In this document: piece after piece, positions 35,884-51,997 of the stretch
How the letters are laid out: each line of letters opens with the position of its first letter
Position numbering within the stretch: the first letter of the stretch is position 1
Assembly (NCBI GenBank): GCA_017303905.1
Contig: JAFLBH010000003.1
Coordinates: forward strand, 372,001 to 436,000
Direction of reading: 5' to 3'
Length of the DNA stretch: 64,000 bases
Source of the DNA: Bacteroidota bacterium
GTDB lineage: Bacteria; Bacteroidota; Bacteroidia; B-17B0; Aurantibacillaceae
The notes under the pieces: model-generated
Database searches by the model: none
The model's input: the letters and a program-made list of their open reading frames with translations, nothing else
Told to the model about the DNA's origin: nothing
Made by a program: the position numbers and the translations under genes

Positions 35884-38800
35884 ATGAAAAAAAATTACTA
35901 TTACTTCATCCTTCTGTTAAGTTTTTTGATCCCTCTAAGTGCAAGTGCTACGCATATTGTTGGTGGATCCTTAACATATACTTTTAATGGCGGTTCCAAT
36001 TATACCGTAATGTTGAAGTTGTATCGCGATTGCTCCGGTGCTGCATTCCCTAATAACGTTACAATTGATGTAATGATGGCTAACGGTCAGGCATTTACCC
36101 CCAGCCGTAATTTTACAATGCCCGGCGGAAGCATCACTAATATCACTCCACTGCTTCCTCCTTGCGCTACATCGCCAACCCCAATGCCTTGTGTGGAAGA
36201 ACGTATTTATACAACTACGGTTAACTTAGCAGCGCATCCGGGTGGCATGCATTTAGAATACGGTTTATGCTGTCGTAACAATAGTATTTCAAATATTCTA
36301 AATCCCGGTGGAGAAGGCGAAACATTCTATGCCTTCATACCGTGTTATAACAAAGCGTGGTCGGAAGATTTTACATTGGCTAATGGAACAATAGTAGATG
36401 CAGGAACAACTGCATGGACACGTACACTTGGTACTACACCACCCACATCCGCACAAGTTAATAACGGTATGTTTGAAGTTGTAGGATCTAATAACGGATC
36501 TGTCGAATGGATTTCACAATCCATAAATATTTCTGCATTTACCAACGGTGTAAACCTTAGTGCAAATCTTGAAAGAGCCGGAAACAACTTTGGTAACAAC
36601 GACTCATTGCGTTTATTTTATTCATTAAATGGTGGACCAAAAGTTGCATGGCCCGTTAACGGTACTAACGTGGGCGCGTGGGCATCTCCAAGATTTGCTA
36701 CCGCAACTGCCTTAGTAGGTAATACCATTCAGATTTATATTCGCTCGAAATTTAACGCGAACAATAACTCAACCGGTAAAACTTTCCGTGTTGATATGGT
36801 AAATGTTTACGACAACACTTTCATCAATAATAGCAGCCCGTACTTTAATGCTTTACCACCGCTATTATTGTGTGCAACAAACCCTTTTAACTTAAATATG
36901 TCGGCAACTGATGCGGATGGTGATGTTTTAGTTTACTCTATGTACACACCATACGATGATAATCCTGTACCAACTTATCCAAACAATTTATTTACTCCAA
37001 ATACAGTTACATGGACTGCAGGTTTCTCTGCTATAAGTCCGTTTAATAATGGAGGTCCTAACGTTACGTTAAATCCTACAACAGGTTTTATGACTGGTGT
37101 TGCGAATACATTAGGACAATATGTATTCGGTGTTAAAGTACAAGAATTCCGTGGAGGTGTTTTATTAAGTGAAGTAGTGCGCGATTACCAAGTAAATACA
37201 GTAACGTGTCCGCCATTTGTTCCTGCTGCGCCAATAGCCAGCGCCAACTCTCCTATTTGTGCAGGACAAACGTTAAGTTTATCAGCCACTTTTACTGCAG
37301 GTGCTACTTATAACTGGACAGGACCTAATGGATTTACATCTACCCTATTAAATCCAACTATTGTTGGAGCATCTACACTTGCCGCAGGGGTGTACTCCGT
37401 TACTGCAACGGTGGCGGGCTGTACAAGTCCTCCCGGCACAGTGGCTGTCGTTGTGAATCCTATACCAACTACACCTACTGCGACAGCTAACTCTCCTATT
37501 TGTGCGGGACAAACTTTAAGCTTATTTTCAAGTACAGTTACAGGTGCAACCTATAATTGGACAGGTCCGAATGCCTTTACTTCAGCTTTACAAAATCCTA
37601 CAATTGCCGGTGCAACAACTTTAGCAGCGGGTGTGTATTCGGTCACTTCCACTGTTTCAGGTTGTACCAGCGGTGCAGGAACTGTTAACGTCGTCGTCAA
37701 TCCATTACCTGCCTCACCAACTGCCGGTGCGAACTCACCGTTATGTGCCGGAAACACACTTAGTTTAACAGCCAGTACAATCGCAGGGGCAACCTACGTC
37801 TGGGCGGGGCCGAATTCCTTTACGTCCGCCGTACAAAATCCAACGATACCGGGTGCGACCACATTAGCCGCAGGGGTGTACTCCGTTAGTGCTATTGTTG
37901 CAGGTTGTCCTGGGCCTATTGGAACTGTGAGCGTAACTATTAACCCTGCCCCTGCAGCGCCTACCGCAGGAAGTAACTCACCGTTATGTGCTGGAAGTAA
38001 CATTAACCTTACATCCTCTGCTATTGCAGGCGCTACATATAACTGGACAGGGCCAAACGCATTTACTTCTACTTTACAAAACCCGACAATAGTTGGTGCT
38101 TCCACATTAGCAGCCGGTGTTTATTCGGTTCGTGCTACTGTTGCAGGTTGTCAAGGTCCTGCAGGTACCACCACGGTAGTTGTTAACCCAACGCCTGCTG
38201 CTCCAACGGCCGGAGGCACTGCTACTTTATGCGCAGGTGGTACAATTAACTTAACCGCTTCTGCCATTGCAGGCGCTACCTACAACTGGACAGGACCTAA
38301 CTCATTTACGTCAAACGTTCAGAATCCAACCATTCCTGGCGCATCTACATTGGCAACCGGCATGTATTCAGTAACTGCAACAGTTGCAGGCTGTACCGGT
38401 CCTGCAGGAACATTCAGCGTTACTGTATTTGGAATACCGGGAGCTCCAACTTTAGGAAGTAATTCTCCTTTATGTACAGGAAACACTTTGAGCTTAACTG
38501 CAAGCACAATCGTTGGTGCAAGTTATAGTTGGACAGGTCCAAACTCATTCTCATCAACATTACAAAACCCTACCATTGCGGCAGCAACAACAGCTGCTTC
38601 GGGTACATATAGTGTATCAGTTAACGTTTCAGGTTGCGGAAGTGCAGTTTCTACTATTGCTATTGTTGTGAACCCTACTCCTGCCGCTCCTACCGCAGGA
38701 AGCAACTCACCATTATGTGCAGGACAAACAATCAACTTAACAGCAAGCAACATTGCAAGTGCAACCTATAGTTGGACAGGCCCTAACTCCTTCTCGTCTA

Positions 38801-41800
38801 CTTTACAAAATCCAAGTATCACCGGGGCAACTACACTTGCCGCAGGTGTATACACCGTTAGAGCAACTGTTGCAGGATGTACAAGTTCAAACGGAACAGT
38901 AAACGTTGTAGTAAATCCAATTCCTGCTTCACCTACTCCGGGAAGCAATTCTCCATTATGCGTTGGTCAAACATTAAGTTTAACAGCCAGCACAATAGCG
39001 GGTGCAACTTATAACTGGAGTGGGCCATCAGGCTTCAACTCTGCTTTACAAAACCCAACAATTGTAAATGCAGTGGTTGGAAACAGCGGAACATATTCTG
39101 TCACTTCAACTGTTGCAGGTTGTACCAGCACTGCTAACGTAATTACGGTTACGGTTAATCCATTACCAGCGGCGCCAAATGCCTCTGCTAACTCACCTTT
39201 ATGTGCATTATCAACCTTAAGTTTAAGTGCCAGCACAATTGCAGGCGCTACTTACAGTTGGACAGGACCTAACTCATTCACATCAACCACTCAAAATCCA
39301 ACCATACCTTCTGTTACAACAACCGCGAGCGGTATTTATTCCGTAACAGCTAACGTACTAGGTTGTGCAGGTCCTGCCGGAACTGTTGCTGTAACTGTTA
39401 ATCCAACACCTGCCGCTCCAACTGCCGGAGGTACTTCAACACTTTGTGCCGGAAGTAACATCAACTTAACTGCAAGCAATATTGCCGGTGCTACTTATAA
39501 CTGGAATGGACCAAACGGATTTACATCTACTTTACAAAATCCAACTATCACAGGTGCATCAACTCTTGCAACCGGTGTTTATTCGGTAACTGCAACTGTT
39601 GGCGGTTGTACAGGACCTGCAGGCACATTTAGTGTTACTGTATTTGGAATCCCTAGTCCTCCAACATTAGCAAGTAACTCTCCAATATGTGCCGGACAAA
39701 CTTTAAATTTAACAGCCACAACAATTGCAGGTGCAAGTTATAACTGGACAGGACCTAACTCTTTCTCTTCAACCTTACAAAACCCAACCATCAGTGGTGT
39801 AACATTAGCTGCTGCGGGTACCTATAGTGTATTGGTAAATGTATCGGGTTGCGGAAGCGCTGTGTCAACAATTACCGTATCAGTGAATCCTACACCTGCC
39901 GCTCCTACTGCCGGAAGTAACTCACCGCTATGCGCAGGTAGTACCATTAACTTAACAGCAAGTACTATTGCCGGTGCAACTTATAATTGGAGTGGACCAA
40001 ACTCATTTACATCAACTACTCAAAATCCTAGTATTCCTGGTGCAAGTACCTTATCTACCGGTGTTTATTCAGTGAATGTAAACGTGGCAGGCTGTACCGG
40101 ACCAAATGGAACAGTTAACGTTGTAGTGAATCCAATTCCATCAGCTCCAACTGTTGGAAGTAACTCTCCGTTGTGTGTCGGACAAACAATAAGTTTAACA
40201 GCAAGTCCGATATCAGGTGCATCTTACAGCTGGAGCGGTCCGAATTCATTTACATCTACTTTGCAAAATCCAACAATTCCGGGAGCTACTACATTAGCAA
40301 CGGGTATTTATTCAGTAACAGCAACTGTTGCAGGATGTACAGGATCAGCAGGTACAGTAAGTGTTTCAGTAAACATTCCTCCTATTGCTCCTTCAGCTTC
40401 TGCTAACTCTCCAATTTGTGCAGGACAAACTTTAAGTTTAACTGCAAGTACAATTGCCGGTGCAACTTATAGCTGGACTGGTCCTGCATCATTTACTTCA
40501 ACTTCACAAAATCCAACCATACCAACAGCTACCACCAGCTCAGCCGGAACATATTCAGTAATCGCATTAGTTGGCGGTTGTGCAGGTCCTGCCGGTGTAG
40601 TAACAGTAACTATCAATCCTGCTCCGGCAGCTCCAACGGCCGGCGGCACTGCTACTTTGTGTGCAGGAAGTAACATTAACTTATCTGCAAGCACAATCGC
40701 AGGCGCAACTTATAATTGGACAGGTCCTGATGGATTTACATCTACAGTACAAAACCCAACTATTACAGCCGCTACTACTTCCGCAACCGGTGTTTATTCA
40801 GTTACAGCAACCGTTGCGGGTTGTCCCGGACCAGCTGGAACAGTAAGCGTAACTGTATATGGAATTCCTGGTCCTCCAACATTAGGAAGTAACTCTCCTG
40901 TGTGTGCCGGTCAAACATTAAGCTTAACTGCTAATAGTATTTTAGGTGCAACTTATATTTGGAGTGGTCCTAATTCGTTTACTGCCACAGTTCAAAACCC
41001 AACACTTGCAGCTGTTACAATACCTGCATCAGGAACTTATAGTGTTGCCATTTCAGTAATGGGTTGCGGAAGCGCTTTAGCAACTACAGCAGTAACAGTT
41101 AATCCATTACCTGCTGCGCCTGTAGCAAACAGTAATGCACCGCTTTGTACAGGCGCAACATTATCATTAACAGCTAGCAATATTCCGGGTGCTACATCAT
41201 ATAGCTGGACCGGACCTAACTCCTTTACATCAACAACGCAAAATCCTACATTACCAACAACCACAACTCTTTCAGCAGGTGTTTACTCAGTTTCTGCTGT
41301 AGCATTAGGTTGTGCAGGCCCTGCAGGAACAGTGAGCGTTGCCGTTAATGACGCACCAAATGTGATTGCAAGCAGCAACTCTACAGTTTGTATTGGTGCC
41401 ACATTAAATTTATCCGCATCAACTATTGCAGGTGCTACTTATACCTGGACAGGACCAAACTCATTCAGTGCAACCACGCAGAACCCAAGCATACCCGGCG
41501 CTACAACTTTAGCAATTGGTGTTTACTCGGTTCAAGCCAATGTTGGAGGATGTGTTGGACCAATCAGTACAACAAGTGTAATGGTAAGTCCTCCACCTGC
41601 TCCACCAACTGCCTCAAGTAGCTCGCCGTTATGTGCCGGTGATACTTTATTCTTAACTGCGAGTCCGGTTGCAGGTGCAACTTACACATGGAGTGGACCA
41701 AACAGCTTTACAGCTACTACTCAAAACCCGAATGTGCCTAACATTCCAATGGCAGGTGCAGGTGTTTATTCTGTAGCCGTAACCGTTGCAGGTTGTCAAG

Positions 41801-44421
41801 GACCTTTCGGTACTATAACTGTAACCGTTAATCCTTCACCTGCTCCACCAATTGCAAGTAACAGTTCTCCAATTTGTATAAGCGGTACATTAAACTTAAA
41901 CGCAAGTAATATTGCAGGCGCAACATACAATTGGGTTGGACCAAATTCATTTACATCAACCACTCAGAATCCAACCATTCCCGGTGCCACCACAATTGCA
42001 GCCGGTGCTTATTCAGTTTATGCAACTGTAGCAGGCTGTACAAGTACCGCCGCGATTACAATAGCAACCATTACGATGCCGGCGACTTTAAGTGCCGGTA
42101 ATAATGCAACTGTTTGTTCTAACAACGTTCCTTTAACAGGAACTTGTAGCACCGGTTCAGGTACATGGACTACCAGCGGTACTGGTGTATTTGTTCCGAA
42201 TTCGTTAACAGGTAACTATGTTCCAAGTGCTGCAGATATTACAGCCGGTACTGTAACATTAACCTTAACCTCTACTAATAACGGTGCTTGTGCACCGGCA
42301 ACATCAACAGTTCAGCTTACCATCTTGCCGGGTCCAACAGCGAACGCAGGATCTGATATTACGGTTTGTGCGAACAACGCAACAGTTGCCCTGACAGGAA
42401 GTGTAACACTTGCTTCAGGCGGACAGTGGTCAAGCTCAGGAACAGGAACATTCAGTCCGAATAACACGAGCTTAAACACAACTTATATCCCAAGTAGTGC
42501 AGATACTACCGCAGGTACAGTAACAATTTTCTTAACCACAACAGGAAACGGAATCTGTTCTGCCACTATTGATACTTTAGTAATTAATTTTAACTCTGCT
42601 CCATTAGTTGTTGCAGGCGGAACAATTTCTGTATGTAAAAATAATCCGGTTGCCGTATTAAGCGGATACTCATCTACCGGAAGTGCTACATGGACATCCT
42701 TAGGAACAGGAACCTTAAGCAGTACATCTGTATTTAATCCAACTTACACACCAAGTACAGCTGATACCACTGCAGGAAGTGTTCAATTAATTTTAACTTC
42801 AGGAAACAATGGAAATTGTAATCCGGTTTCGGATACAGTGACGATTGTATATTCGAGTCCTCCAACAATTACAGCAGGTTTAACACAAACTGTATGTTCG
42901 AATAACCCTATAGTTACTTTAAATGGTGTTTCATCTACTTCATCCGGTACATGGACAACCAGCGGTAGCGGATCCTTCTCTCCAAATACAATTAATGGTA
43001 CATATGTTCCAAGTGCTGCGGATATCACAGCCGGTACAGTAACATTAACAGTCACATCTACTAATAACGGAGGATGTAATCCGGTAACAAGCACAGTGAA
43101 TGTGTCGATTATTCCTGGACCAACTTCTGATGCAGGTGTTGATCTAACGGTTTGCGCCAATACCACATCCATTGCATTAAATGGTTCAGTTACCGTTGCA
43201 ACAGGTGGTACATGGACAACCAACGGAACAGGTACGTTTAGTCCGGGTAACTCCTTAACAACAACGTATATTCCTAGTGCTGCTGATACAACTGCAGGAA
43301 GTGTAACCATTTACTTAACTACAACAGGTAACGGTATATGTTTACAGGTAGTAGATTCTATGGTAATTACCTTCCAAAGTGCTCCAAGCATCAGTGCAGG
43401 TAACAACATCTTTGTTTGTAAAAATCAAACCAGCGTTAACTTAAATGCAAGTTCATCGGTACCTAGTGTAACATGGACTACTTTAGGAAGCGGTTCATTT
43501 AATCCAAGCAATACAGGGTTAACCACCAGTTACATTCCGAGTACAGCAGATACCACTGCAGGAAGCGTTACTATCTATGTGACAGGTGCCGGCAACGGAT
43601 TCTGTGCGGGTGCTGTTGACACAGTAACAATATTCTTCCAAGGCCCTCCATTAGCGAATTTCTTGGCGAATAATAAATGTGTGAATGCAGCAACAACATT
43701 TACCGATATGTCGACTGTAGCAACTGGTTCAATTATTTCTTGGAACTGGAACTTTGGTGCGGCAGGAACTTCTACAGTACAAAATCCTTCGGTAACATTT
43801 ACAGCTACAGGAACACAAACCATTTCGTTAACCGTAAGCACAGGTTGTTTGGATTCTATTACAAAAGTTGTTTACATCAATCCTAATCCGGTTGCCAGCT
43901 TCTCGTTCACTGAACTGTGTCATGATTCAGCAGCCTTCTTTGGAATCGGCAGTGTAAATCCGGGTACGATTACAGGATGGAACTGGAACTTCGGTGATAC
44001 AACAGGTTCTACATTACAAAATCCGATTCACCTATATCCTGATACAGGAAGTTACATTGTGACTTTAACTGTAATGTCTGATTCAGGTTGTGTGGCAGGA
44101 GCATCGGATACCATTCACTTGAAGAAATGCGGAACCGATATTACGGTAAGCAACCCTGCTGTTCCGAGTGGATTTACACCTAACGGAGACGGTAAGAACG
44201 ATATTCTTTATGTGAAAGGCGGACCATTAAGCGAAATGAACTTCCGAATTTATAACGAATGGGGTAACGAAGTGTTTAAATCAACCGAACAAAATTATGG
44301 TTGGGACGGAACCTTCCGAAGTGCGCCGCAGCCCGCCGGACGTTATCTCTGGATACTCACAGGGAAAGTGATAGACGGACGAGATGTGAAAATGCAAGGG
44401 GAAGTTATATTAACAAGATAA
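35884..44421 (+). CDS. Giant repetitive T9SS type B surface protein, adhesin-like (2845 aa)
   Basis: A signal peptide (residues 1-22) is followed by the Bacteroidota THIVGGSLTY N-terminal domain, split at about 157-312 by an inserted beta domain. From about 451 to 2065 there are 20 Ig-like repeats of 81 residues, with consensus features SNSPLCAGxTLSLTAS, GATYNWTGPNSFTSTLQNP and GVYSVTATVAGC. Six repeats of about 87 residues follow (about 2070-2589; GTWTTSGTG, YxPSAADTTAGTV), then two PKD domains (SWNWNFG, GWNWNFGD) and a type B sorting domain (VPSGFTPNGDGKNDILYVKG, RIYNEWGNEVFK). A PorP/SprF gene follows after 37 nt, matching the SprB/SprF arrangement in gliding Flavobacteria. No SprB-specific repeats are seen. 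Inferred role: long surface adhesin. Confidence 0.9.
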   Translation: MKKNYYYFILLLSFLIPLSASATHIVGGSLTYTFNGGSNYTVMLKLYRDCSGAAFPNNVTIDVMMANGQAFTPSRNFTMPGGSITNITPLLPPCATSPTPMPCVEERIYTTTVNLAAHPGGMHLEYGLCCRNNSISNILNPGGEGETFYAFIPCYNKAWSEDFTLANGTIVDAGTTAWTRTLGTTPPTSAQVNNGMFEVVGSNNGSVEWISQSINISAFTNGVNLSANLERAGNNFGNNDSLRLFYSLNGGPKVAWPVNGTNVGAWASPRFATATALVGNTIQIYIRSKFNANNNSTGKTFRVDMVNVYDNTFINNSSPYFNALPPLLLCATNPFNLNMSATDADGDVLVYSMYTPYDDNPVPTYPNNLFTPNTVTWTAGFSAISPFNNGGPNVTLNPTTGFMTGVANTLGQYVFGVKVQEFRGGVLLSEVVRDYQVNTVTCPPFVPAAPIASANSPICAGQTLSLSATFTAGATYNWTGPNGFTSTLLNPTIVGASTLAAGVYSVTATVAGCTSPPGTVAVVVNPIPTTPTATANSPICAGQTLSLFSSTVTGATYNWTGPNAFTSALQNPTIAGATTLAAGVYSVTSTVSGCTSGAGTVNVVVNPLPASPTAGANSPLCAGNTLSLTASTIAGATYVWAGPNSFTSAVQNPTIPGATTLAAGVYSVSAIVAGCPGPIGTVSVTINPAPAAPTAGSNSPLCAGSNINLTSSAIAGATYNWTGPNAFTSTLQNPTIVGASTLAAGVYSVRATVAGCQGPAGTTTVVVNPTPAAPTAGGTATLCAGGTINLTASAIAGATYNWTGPNSFTSNVQNPTIPGASTLATGMYSVTATVAGCTGPAGTFSVTVFGIPGAPTLGSNSPLCTGNTLSLTASTIVGASYSWTGPNSFSSTLQNPTIAAATTAASGTYSVSVNVSGCGSAVSTIAIVVNPTPAAPTAGSNSPLCAGQTINLTASNIASATYSWTGPNSFSSTLQNPSITGATTLAAGVYTVRATVAGCTSSNGTVNVVVNPIPASPTPGSNSPLCVGQTLSLTASTIAGATYNWSGPSGFNSALQNPTIVNAVVGNSGTYSVTSTVAGCTSTANVITVTVNPLPAAPNASANSPLCALSTLSLSASTIAGATYSWTGPNSFTSTTQNPTIPSVTTTASGIYSVTANVLGCAGPAGTVAVTVNPTPAAPTAGGTSTLCAGSNINLTASNIAGATYNWNGPNGFTSTLQNPTITGASTLATGVYSVTATVGGCTGPAGTFSVTVFGIPSPPTLASNSPICAGQTLNLTATTIAGASYNWTGPNSFSSTLQNPTISGVTLAAAGTYSVLVNVSGCGSAVSTITVSVNPTPAAPTAGSNSPLCAGSTINLTASTIAGATYNWSGPNSFTSTTQNPSIPGASTLSTGVYSVNVNVAGCTGPNGTVNVVVNPIPSAPTVGSNSPLCVGQTISLTASPISGASYSWSGPNSFTSTLQNPTIPGATTLATGIYSVTATVAGCTGSAGTVSVSVNIPPIAPSASANSPICAGQTLSLTASTIAGATYSWTGPASFTSTSQNPTIPTATTSSAGTYSVIALVGGCAGPAGVVTVTINPAPAAPTAGGTATLCAGSNINLSASTIAGATYNWTGPDGFTSTVQNPTITAATTSATGVYSVTATVAGCPGPAGTVSVTVYGIPGPPTLGSNSPVCAGQTLSLTANSILGATYIWSGPNSFTATVQNPTLAAVTIPASGTYSVAISVMGCGSALATTAVTVNPLPAAPVANSNAPLCTGATLSLTASNIPGATSYSWTGPNSFTSTTQNPTLPTTTTLSAGVYSVSAVALGCAGPAGTVSVAVNDAPNVIASSNSTVCIGATLNLSASTIAGATYTWTGPNSFSATTQNPSIPGATTLAIGVYSVQANVGGCVGPISTTSVMVSPPPAPPTASSSSPLCAGDTLFLTASPVAGATYTWSGPNSFTATTQNPNVPNIPMAGAGVYSVAVTVAGCQGPFGTITVTVNPSPAPPIASNSSPICISGTLNLNASNIAGATYNWVGPNSFTSTTQNPTIPGATTIAAGAYSVYATVAGCTSTAAITIATITMPATLSAGNNATVCSNNVPLTGTCSTGSGTWTTSGTGVFVPNSLTGNYVPSAADITAGTVTLTLTSTNNGACAPATSTVQLTILPGPTANAGSDITVCANNATVALTGSVTLASGGQWSSSGTGTFSPNNTSLNTTYIPSSADTTAGTVTIFLTTTGNGICSATIDTLVINFNSAPLVVAGGTISVCKNNPVAVLSGYSSTGSATWTSLGTGTLSSTSVFNPTYTPSTADTTAGSVQLILTSGNNGNCNPVSDTVTIVYSSPPTITAGLTQTVCSNNPIVTLNGVSSTSSGTWTTSGSGSFSPNTINGTYVPSAADITAGTVTLTVTSTNNGGCNPVTSTVNVSIIPGPTSDAGVDLTVCANTTSIALNGSVTVATGGTWTTNGTGTFSPGNSLTTTYIPSAADTTAGSVTIYLTTTGNGICLQVVDSMVITFQSAPSISAGNNIFVCKNQTSVNLNASSSVPSVTWTTLGSGSFNPSNTGLTTSYIPSTADTTAGSVTIYVTGAGNGFCAGAVDTVTIFFQGPPLANFLANNKCVNAATTFTDMSTVATGSIISWNWNFGAAGTSTVQNPSVTFTATGTQTISLTVSTGCLDSITKVVYINPNPVASFSFTELCHDSAAFFGIGSVNPGTITGWNWNFGDTTGSTLQNPIHLYPDTGSYIVTLTVMSDSGCVAGASDTIHLKKCGTDITVSNPAVPSGFTPNGDGKNDILYVKGGPLSEMNFRIYNEWGNEVFKSTEQNYGWDGTFRSAPQPAGRYLWILTGKVIDGRDVKMQGEVILTR
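37234..42078 (+). repeat. Tandem array of 20 Ig-like units (243 bp each) with 1215-bp higher-order period
   Basis: Twenty in-frame copies of an 81-codon unit. Units 5, 10 and 15 start with the variant TAGGT(A/S)TLCAG, and their matching points lie at 38215, 39430 and 40645, exactly 1215 bp (five units) apart. Units 6, 11 and 16 share TLxSNSP and SGCGSA/MGCGSA, and units 8 and 13 share LCVGQT. Unit 17 carries one extra codon. Confidence 0.93.
42091..43650 (+). repeat. Six-unit array of about 87 codons with three-unit higher-order period
   Basis: Units 1 and 4 carry VCSNN, 2 and 5 carry TVCAN, 3 and 6 carry VCKN, with corresponding points 780-786 bp apart. The array therefore reads ABC-ABC, a duplicated block of three. 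Confidence 0.9.
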
Positions 44422-49558: not shown

Positions 49559-49837
49559 ATGGCAAAAGTGAGTGTAAAACCGTTAGCTGACCGAGTTCTG
49601 GTAGAACCGGCCGAAGCTGAGACAAAAACTGCTTCAGGAATCATTATTCCTGATACAGCAAAAGAAAAACCAATGAAAGGAAAAGTAATTGCTGTAGGAG
49701 CAGGTAAAAAAGACGAACCTGTTACCGTTAAGGTAGGCGACACTGTGTTATACGGAAAATACGCAGGTACCGAATTACAAATCGACGGTAAGGAATATTT
49801 AATCATGCGTGAAAGCGATATTTACGCAGTTATATAA
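49559..49837 (+). CDS. groES: Co-chaperonin GroES (92 aa)
   Basis: Heptameric lid of the GroEL chaperonin; cytosolic. The opening [33 protein letters not shown] contains the mobile loop, followed by [33 protein letters not shown] and a terminal [13 protein letters not shown]. Length is typical for the phylum. It is 132 nt upstream of groEL on the same strand, with no terminator between them, and lies behind a sigma-54-like promoter. Confidence 0.97.
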
Positions 49838-49890
49838 ATTGTTTGAGGTTTGACTGTTTTAAGTTTATTGAGGGCTACTGCCTAAACAAC

Positions 49891-51600
<1,710 letters not shown>

Positions 51601-51601
<1 letters not shown>

Positions 51602-51650
51602 AATTGCTTCGCAATTTTATCGCGAGTGACCGTAGGGAACCTCGCGATAA
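51601..51650 (+). repeat. Two hairpins directly after groEL
   Basis: AAATTGC/GCAATTT with a 3-nt loop (51601-51617) and TTATCGCGAG/CTCGCGATAA with a 14-nt loop (51617-51626, 51641-51650). They precede the terminator and may protect the 3' end of the mRNA or be remnants of dispersed repeats. Confidence 0.7.
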
Positions 51651-51660
51651 TGATAAAACA

Positions 51661-51692
51661 AAAAAAGCCTCGTAGAAATACGGGGCTTTTAT
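51661..51692 (+). terminator. Rho-independent terminator of groES-groEL
   Basis: AAAAGCCTCGTA and TACGGGGCTTTT pair with one G-U across a GAAA loop, followed by a T-rich stretch. Confidence 0.9.
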
Positions 51693-51696
51693 ATTT

Positions 51697-51728
51697 CGTC
51701 ATTGCGAGGAGGAACGACGAAGCAATCT
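51697..51728. repeat. Short dispersed repeat of the GTCATTGCGAGG type
   Basis: CGTCATTGCGAGGAGG followed by ACGACGAAGCAATCT forms an imperfect inverted repeat (ATTGC...GCAAT). Similar phrases recur in intergenic regions of many bacteria; family assignment is from memory. Confidence 0.55.
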
Positions 51729-51773
51729 TTAGCTAATAAAAAAACCATATGAATAATTTAACTTTTAAACTTA

Positions 51774-51814
51774 TGTCAGCGTGTCATTATAAATGATTGG
51801 CACAACATTTGCTT
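51774..51814 (+). promoter_or_regulatory. Sigma-54-type promoter of the 27-codon gene
   Basis: TTGGCAC (51797-51803), N5, TTGCTT (51809-51814) matches the -24/-12 consensus at every key base, with GG and GC separated by 10 bp. TGTCA-GCG-TGTCA at 51774-51786 repeats the motif found upstream of groES. Transcription should start near 51824, 13 nt before the ATG. Confidence 0.7.
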
Positions 51815-51836
51815 ATTTTCTATTAAACTAATAATT

Positions 51837-51920
51837 ATGGAAACAAAAAATCAAAATCCAAATTATCCAAGCACAACCGGAAATCCTTCAGGTAAAGGAA
51901 GAGGTAATGTGAAAAAGTAA
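51837..51920 (+). CDS. Predicted 27-aa peptide behind a sigma-54-type promoter
   Basis: An ATG at 51837 opens a 27-codon frame rich in Asn, Pro, Gly and Lys (NPNYPSTTGNPSGKGRGN, then Val-Lys-Lys), with no hydrophobic segment. It is placed 13 nt after the predicted start of a sigma-54-type promoter and followed by an 8-bp hairpin and a rho-independent terminator, giving a compact transcript of about 175 nt. The low-complexity composition suggests a disordered basic peptide; the transcript could also act as RNA. Function unknown. Small size keeps confidence moderate. Confidence 0.5.
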   Translation: METKNQNPNYPSTTGNPSGKGRGNVKK

Positions 51921-51927
51921 AAATGAA

Positions 51928-51954
51928 TTAGGGACTAAAATAACAGGTCCCTAA
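51928..51954 (+). other. RNA hairpin after the 27-codon gene
   Basis: TTAGGGAC and GTCCCTAA are perfect 8-bp arms around an 11-nt loop, located between the small gene's stop codon and the terminator; no T run follows directly. Confidence 0.7.
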
Positions 51955-51971
51955 CAACCCATTCTTTAGAG

Positions 51972-51997
51972 CCCCGCTAGTAATACCGGGGTTTTTT
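51972..51997 (+). terminator. Terminator of the 27-codon transcription unit
   Basis: CCCCG (51972-51976) and CGGGG (51987-51991), with further pairing possible within the loop, are followed by a run of six T. Confidence 0.8.

What the first reader, a model, noticed from the sequence alone, without database searches (positions are those of the whole stretch)
51824..51997. Compact 175-nt transcription unit encoding a 27-residue basic peptide or small RNA
A consensus -24/-12 promoter, a 13-nt leader, a 27-codon frame rich in Asn, Pro, Gly and Lys, a perfect 8-bp hairpin and a rho-independent terminator are stacked with no spare sequence. Such a complete unit is unlikely by chance and would be missed by gene finders with a length cut-off.
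Basis: partly seen in the sequence, partly recalled or inferred. Interest (0 to 1): 0.62.

Follow-up and report, generated by a model that had tools for sequence, protein, structure and literature searches.

The report
Widespread unnamed mini-protein with conserved box
A 27-amino-acid gene next to a bacterial chaperone gene proves to be one member of an unannotated family of tiny proteins that share one nearly identical 14-residue stretch in bacteria, archaea and phages, sometimes beside anti-virus genes, and whose job is unknown.

Summary
ORF 51837-51920 has a perfect -24/-12 promoter (one of three in the genome; the other two lie inside ORFs), a terminator, and codes for a 27-residue basic peptide. 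It is a real gene. Third codon positions are near saturation while residues are fixed. No Pfam, PHROGs or NCBIfam model matched. A sister genome lacks the unit at the same site. The box is portable: it ends stand-alone peptides, SMP-like peptides and, in five phage contigs, a ubiquitin-fold protein (four of them with ThiF- and JAB-like genes). In Bacteroidota it recurs beside viperins, type I restriction genes and a RelE-fold ORF; elsewhere it often pairs with a second tiny family (DNxSxQLNPN). Best reading: a horizontally moving mini-protein, here sigma-54-driven, whose disordered box binds a conserved cell partner, probably in phage-host conflict or stress. Partner and activity are unknown; that step is inference.

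The parts
51798..51813 (+). -24/-12 (sigma-54 type) promoter TGGCACAACATTTGCT
   Evidence: exact consensus, one of 3 in the genome, others inside ORFs; RpoN present; function not tested
51837..51920 (+). 27-codon gene for a PSTTG-box mini-protein, stop included
   Evidence: family conservation
51867..51908 (+). codons of the conserved box PSTTGNPSGKGRGN
   Evidence: core of the alignment
51928..51954 (+). hairpin, 8 perfect pairs plus one G-U
   Evidence: strand folding; conservation in relatives not tested
51968..51997 (+). intrinsic terminator; homology with the sister genome without the unit resumes here
   Evidence: fold -13 kcal/mol; alignment with G006
49970..51601 (+). groEL, upstream flank shared with the sister genome that lacks the unit
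   Evidence: named by reading of the sequence

Best explanation
The ORF is a genuine, self-contained, horizontally moving gene for a 27-residue, basic, probably disordered protein of a family that I call PSTTG-box proteins. SHOWN: amino-acid-level conservation of the box in bacteria, archaea and phages; patchy presence, and presence/absence at one site between sister species; a sigma-54-type promoter sequence of its own here; the same box on different carriers (mostly as the C-terminal end, sometimes N-terminal); in part of the loci, viperin, type I restriction, RelE-fold and other tiny-protein genes as neighbours. INFERRED: when RpoN is active the cell makes the peptide; the fixed box is a short binding module that docks on a partner common to the bacteria and archaea that carry it (ribosome/RNA or a core protein) and modulates that partner during phage attack or stress; fused to a carrier, the box brings the carrier to the same partner. 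No partner or activity was identified.
For: 120 of 120 genome and 34 of 34 viral pattern hits carry the core in frame; reversed pattern 1. Third positions 1.0-1.96 bits against near-zero at positions 1-2 of the fixed residues; Ser2 AGY in 128/145, Ser8 TCN in 138/145 cores. Same box on ubiquitin-fold, SMP-like and other carriers. Empty site in sister genome G006. Viperin next to the gene in L088, L142, L096, L086, L254; 3 in 33 Bacteroidota loci against 0.004 expected. Type I restriction locus L185. Second tiny family on the same strand within 300 nt in 9 of 120 loci. Box predicted disordered when fused to the phage ubiquitin-like domain.
Against: Most loci show no defence gene; PADLOC near-versus-far comparison shows no excess. 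Sigma-54 sites are not a family trait (2 of 162 loose upstream matches, 2.4 expected). No sequence match to a solved structure. Expression, binding and phenotype untested.
Confidence: 0.42

Rival explanations
1. Hydrophilin / LEA-like stress protectant: the peptide acts by bulk physical chemistry (hydration, shielding) under stress, not by a specific partner.
For: All 150 distinct members are basic and at least 6.7% Gly; 129 of 150 have mean hydropathy below -1. Neighbour or fusion of SMP-like peptides, one of them above the Pfam cut-off of seed maturation protein. Position after groEL in this genome.
Against: A bulk protectant does not need a letter-for-letter 14-residue box with Ser, Thr, Arg and Asn fixed. 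Phage genomes and restriction/viperin loci are odd places for it.
Confidence: 0.2
2. Partner (antitoxin, adaptor or substrate) of a neighbouring toxin-like protein: in Bacteroidota it follows an ORF with RelE/HigB-like predicted fold.
For: ORF directly upstream in L088, L086, L019/L020, L158, L254; model pLDDT 85.7; the best-ranked aligned chains are mostly RelE-superfamily toxins, Z up to 5.9.
Against: No such ORF beside the window gene or in most loci; Foldseek itself is weak (best E 0.44); Z under 8 can be a common arrangement. A family-wide antitoxin role is therefore unlikely.
Confidence: 0.1
3. Secreted or released bioactive peptide (bacteriocin-, signal- or RiPP-like).
For: Short, basic, own promoter and terminator; LytTR response regulators precede the gene in L043 and L185.
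Against: No hydrophobic leader (at most 1 of 150 members above 15% I/L/V/F), Cys in only 11 of 150, no constant transporter or modifying enzyme; the box is also the end of a ubiquitin-fold protein.
Confidence: 0.08
4. Small RNA or non-coding unit; the frame is incidental.
For: Compact unit with two stable hairpins, z -2.5.
Against: Fixed residues with free third positions in 145 cores; no Rfam match.
Confidence: 0.03

Closest known systems
SMP (seed maturation protein, Pfam PF04927)-like bacterial peptides
   Same: Tiny hydrophilic peptides; adjacent or fused to the PSTTG box in L081, L083, L093, L121, L132, L145, L170
   Different: Different sequence; the PSTTG box matches no Pfam model
Hydrophilins / LEA proteins
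   Same: Gly-rich, hydrophilic, short; LEAPdb paper (PMC2858754, passages seen) calls LEA proteins part of the hydrophilins
   Different: Fixed 14-residue motif; no stress data
Prokaryotic ubiquitin-like / E1 / JAB gene clusters and phage ubiquitin-like proteins (PMC1779556, passages seen)
   Same: Phage carriers of the box have a ubiquitin/ThiS fold and, in 4 of 5 contigs, ThiF- and JAB-like neighbours
   Different: The window gene is the box alone, with no beta-grasp domain; the tail is not mentioned in the passages seen
RelE/HigB/ParE toxin superfamily with small partner
   Same: Predicted fold of the ORF just upstream of the peptide in several Bacteroidota loci
   Different: Absent beside the window gene; the peptide itself has no such domain
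KGG-repeat (GsiB/YciG-like) small stress proteins (recalled, no call)
   Same: Short, Gly/Lys-rich, widely spread
   Different: Motif differs; no Pfam match for the box

Membership tests
PSTTG-box family (defined here) | PS..G..SG..R[GD]N core in frame | tested here: met
   Window: PSTTGNPSGKGRGN
PSTTG-box family (defined here) | Core near the C-terminus, basic tail, positive net charge | tested here: met
   Window ends NVKK, charge +4; 132 of 150 members have at most 10 residues after the core
Sigma-54-dependent gene | -24/-12 element upstream and RpoN in the genome | tested here: met
   dependence itself not testable here
Sigma-54-dependent gene | Enhancer-binding activator site and RpoN-dependent transcript | not testable with these tools
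   no expression data
Hydrophilin | Gly over 6% and hydrophilicity index over 1 (definition recalled) | tested here: met
   Window: 14.8% Gly, mean hydropathy -1.85 (Kyte-Doolittle); 129 of 150 members below -1
Hydrophilin | Induced by and protective in osmotic or drying stress | not testable with these tools
   no expression or phenotype data
SMP (PF04927) | Match to the Pfam model | tested here: not met
   0 families for the window peptide at E up to 1
Type II toxin-antitoxin partner (RelBE-like) | Adjacent RelE-fold toxin gene | tested here: inconclusive
   no such ORF seen beside the window gene (by reading); present in some Bacteroidota relatives
Type II toxin-antitoxin partner (RelBE-like) | Neutralises a toxin | not testable with these tools
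   needs experiment
Ubiquitin-like modifier | Beta-grasp domain | tested here: not met
   the 27-residue window peptide consists only of what is the tail in the phage carriers
RiPP/bacteriocin precursor | Modifying enzyme or exporter gene nearby | tested here: not met
   none among the ORFs around the window gene by reading; no constant partner in relatives

The most novel reading that the evidence does not exclude
The PSTTG box is a portable docking tag, one of several interchangeable mini-protein tags (with the DNxSxQLNPN and SMP-like peptides), that recruits stand-alone peptides or their carriers, including a phage ubiquitin-like modifier from which a JAB-like peptidase could release it, to a core machine shared by bacteria and archaea; it is traded between hosts, plasmids and phages as a weapon or shield in phage-host conflict.
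Probability: 0.2. Interest if true: 0.92.

Novelty: categorically new. Interest (0 to 1): 0.72.

Why it matters
A 14-residue string held almost letter for letter in bacteria, archaea and phages, yet absent from the Pfam, PHROGs and NCBIfam models and from the paper library searched, points to a cell component that many lineages and viruses have learned to bind. Because members are only 23-74 residues long, gene finders can skip them. The family gives a ready set of natural variants, carriers and neighbours for finding that partner, and would add tiny proteins to the parts list of viperin and restriction loci.

Tried and rejected
Rejected: chance ORF and small RNA (codon pattern). Rejected as a family rule: sigma-54 control. 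A general defence-island enrichment was not shown: PADLOC top families of 150 nearest neighbours (drawn at random from 208) and of 150 genes over 3 kb away (from 175) gave no clear excess near the peptide; that output lists only 25 families, so the test is weak. A reciprocal test of the second tiny family is circular: of 8 confident matches 5 lie beside a PSTTG gene, but all 5 come from genomes that supplied seed sequences; the 3 others are not adjacent (2 of those 3 genomes hold a PSTTG gene elsewhere). From the unbiased side 9 of 120 loci have it within 300 nt, but the regex was written after members had been seen, so the P value is nominal; the same holds for the viperin figure. tblastn against phages and plasmids found nothing, perhaps because of the low-complexity filter; DNA searches of phages and E. 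coli genomes found nothing. No PDB sequence match to the family (best E 0.39). For the RelE-like ORF, Foldseek alone gave no match at E <= 0.001. Resemblance to ribosomal-protein tails was considered from memory and not tested.

Prevalence: Bacteroidia 48 of 395 genomes at E<=0.1 (31 at E<=0.001 by my count); Campylobacterota 15 of 200 at E<=0.001; Pseudomonadota 6 of 299 at E<=0.01, 2 of them strong; Chloroflexota 1 of 201. The centre genome, chosen because it holds the gene, is included in each count.

Full report
WHAT IS IN THE WINDOW. Downstream of groES-groEL (49559-51601; named by reading) lies a unit of about 200 nt: a perfect -24/-12 element (51798-51813), an ATG at 51837, 27 codons, a hairpin (51928-51954) and a terminator (51968-51997). 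The genome has exactly three perfect TGGCACN5TTGCW sites; the other two fall inside long ORFs. RpoN is encoded.

IT IS A GENE FAMILY. A single-sequence search of 100 relatives gave 13 genomes at E<=1, best relative 7.6e-9, but 0 of the 7 same-genus genomes. A profile of 12 members gave 48 of 395 Bacteroidia genomes at E<=0.1. All 34 and all 120 carry the core in frame. The same pattern with the residues in reverse order hit 1 viral contig. By record title the 120 are Pseudomonadota 43, Bacteroidota 33, Chloroflexota 10, Campylobacterota 10, Myxococcota 6, Planctomycetota 5, archaea 4, other bacteria 8, unnamed 1; none is from Bacillota or Actinomycetota (my assignment from titles). Two of three archaeal genomes searched hold two copies on separate contigs, which speaks against stray contamination there.

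SELECTION AND DESCENT. In 145 distinct 42-nt cores, codon positions 1 and 2 of the fixed residues hardly vary, while third positions carry 1.0 to 1.96 bits. Ser2 is coded AGY in 128 of 145 and Ser8 TCN in 138 of 145; AGY and TCN are two steps apart, so this looks like inheritance from one ancestor rather than repeated invention. The pattern allowed both codon types. It did demand most of the fixed residues, so freedom at the others is better judged from profile hits: PS..G..SG..R[GD]N holds there, with variants such as PSKTG, PSTIPG and PSTNTG.

ANATOMY. Over 150 distinct members (of 162 rows, some loci present in two collections): 23-74 residues, median 24% Gly, net charge always positive (median +7), 133 end in Lys or Arg, 132 have at most 10 residues after the core (start codons chosen by rule). 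So the box is usually the C-terminal end after a variable Gly/Ser/Lys/Pro-rich part. No match in Pfam, PHROGs or NCBIfam. No paper in the library holds the motif strings tried (open-access PMC only, no preprints).

THE BOX IS PORTABLE. (a) In five phage contigs it ends a protein of about 100 residues. Its body is predicted with pLDDT over 90 for most of residues 1-60 and matches ThiS/MoaD and ubiquitin (Z 9.8 to ThiS 1zud, 3.5 A over 63 residues; Z 7.8 to ubiquitin 1ubq, 2.6 A over 66; Foldseek best E 4.5e-4); the tail is disordered (pLDDT about 45). Three tail-less copies occur in the same contigs. Four of the five contigs also show a ThiF-like ORF (Pfam ThiF E 1.5e-22 for L244) and an ORF with weak Prok-JAB similarity (E 0.0044, below the cut-off). 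Ubiquitin-like/E1/JAB clusters and phage ubiquitin-like proteins are known (PMC1779556, passages seen); the tail is not mentioned in those passages. (b) SMP-like peptides carry the box in L121, L170 and L081, and lie beside it in L083, L132, L093 and L145. (c) An Acinetobacter 143-aa ORF ends in AGWPSKTGNPSGSGRYNNV, 12 nt after the stop of a stand-alone copy. (d) N-terminal copies head longer frames in L183, L252 and perhaps L078 and L175, followed in three of them by Asp-rich linkers (by reading).

NEIGHBOURS. Most neighbours differ from locus to locus. Recurrent ones are: a second tiny family with DN[HRY][SA]xQ[LMK]N, within 300 nt and on the same strand in 9 of 120 genome loci and 2 of 34 viral loci, including a two-peptide operon on Acinetobacter plasmids (26 records match the region; three read) where only the partner is annotated; an ORF of 95-116 aa just upstream in L088, L086, L019/L020, L158 and L254, whose model aligns best with RelE-superfamily toxins (Foldseek itself weak); viperins in L088, L142, L096, L086 (blastp cluster only) and L254; type I restriction genes around L185 and L043 (by reading). 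Clear viperins (E below 1e-34) occur in 16 of 390 Bacteroidia genomes; the other hits lie near 1e-21 and look like other radical-SAM proteins. Three in 33 short Bacteroidota loci is far above 0.004 expected. Seen from the viperins, 2 of 16 loci carry the peptide within 1.5 kb, one of them in a diverged form. A broad PADLOC comparison of near and far genes showed no excess.

MOBILITY. Genome G006, identical in the groEL part compared (133 aa), has groEL and the next 210-aa ORF but not the peptide unit; homology resumes at the terminator. So the unit was gained or lost recently.

HOW IT MOST LIKELY WORKS. Shown: a real gene, a conserved box, several carriers, mobility, and a tie to anti-phage loci in part of the family. 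Inferred: a peptide made when RpoN is active, acting through its box on a partner common to its many hosts. I put 0.42 on this and 0.2 on a bulk protectant role. Against it stand the many loci without defence genes and the lack of any expression or binding data.

NOVELTY. No known family claims it in the libraries searched; subscription literature and preprints could not be searched. I rate the family categorically new and its mechanism open.

Noticed in passing
L124, L174, L187, L184, L133, L288, L300, L301 and others: A second unannotated tiny-protein family (33-57 aa) with the motif DN[HR][SA]xQLNPNN..Y..SR; also N-terminal copies on longer phage proteins (L284, L286). No Pfam or NCBIfam match, no paper text hit.
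   Followed up: partly
L244, L250, L240, L229, L231: Phage gene cluster with tandem ubiquitin-fold proteins, ThiF-like and JAB-like ORFs, PhoH-like and Whirly-like genes.
   Followed up: partly
L088, L254, L258, L086: A RelE-fold-like ORF of 95-99 aa follows viperin(-kinase) genes in Bacteroidota, with or without the PSTTG peptide behind it.
   Followed up: partly
L082, L093, L121, L126, L132, L145, L170: Recurrent module in Gammaproteobacteria and Campylobacterota: small helical ORF ('GWSQKxLAR..'), SMP-like peptide, PSTTG peptide, zinc-ribbon membrane-type ORF in convergent order.
   Followed up: partly
L199-L201, L184, L153: Acinetobacter plasmids and chromosomes: a ~340-370 aa ORF without Pfam match, convergent with the two-peptide operon, near toxin-antitoxin and abortive-infection genes.
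   Followed up: no
window 51700-51727: REP-like palindromic stretch CATTGCGAGGAGGAACGACGAAGCAATC between groEL terminator and the peptide promoter; only one copy in the window at up to 3 mismatches.
   Followed up: partly
window 35884-44421: A 2845-aa ORF made of many Ig-like repeats (SGATYxWTGPNxFTSTxQNPTI type), by reading.
   Followed up: no
window 51602-51970 against L274: The interval between groEL and the next ORF is unrelated between the two sister genomes although both flanks are 86-98% identical.
   Followed up: yes
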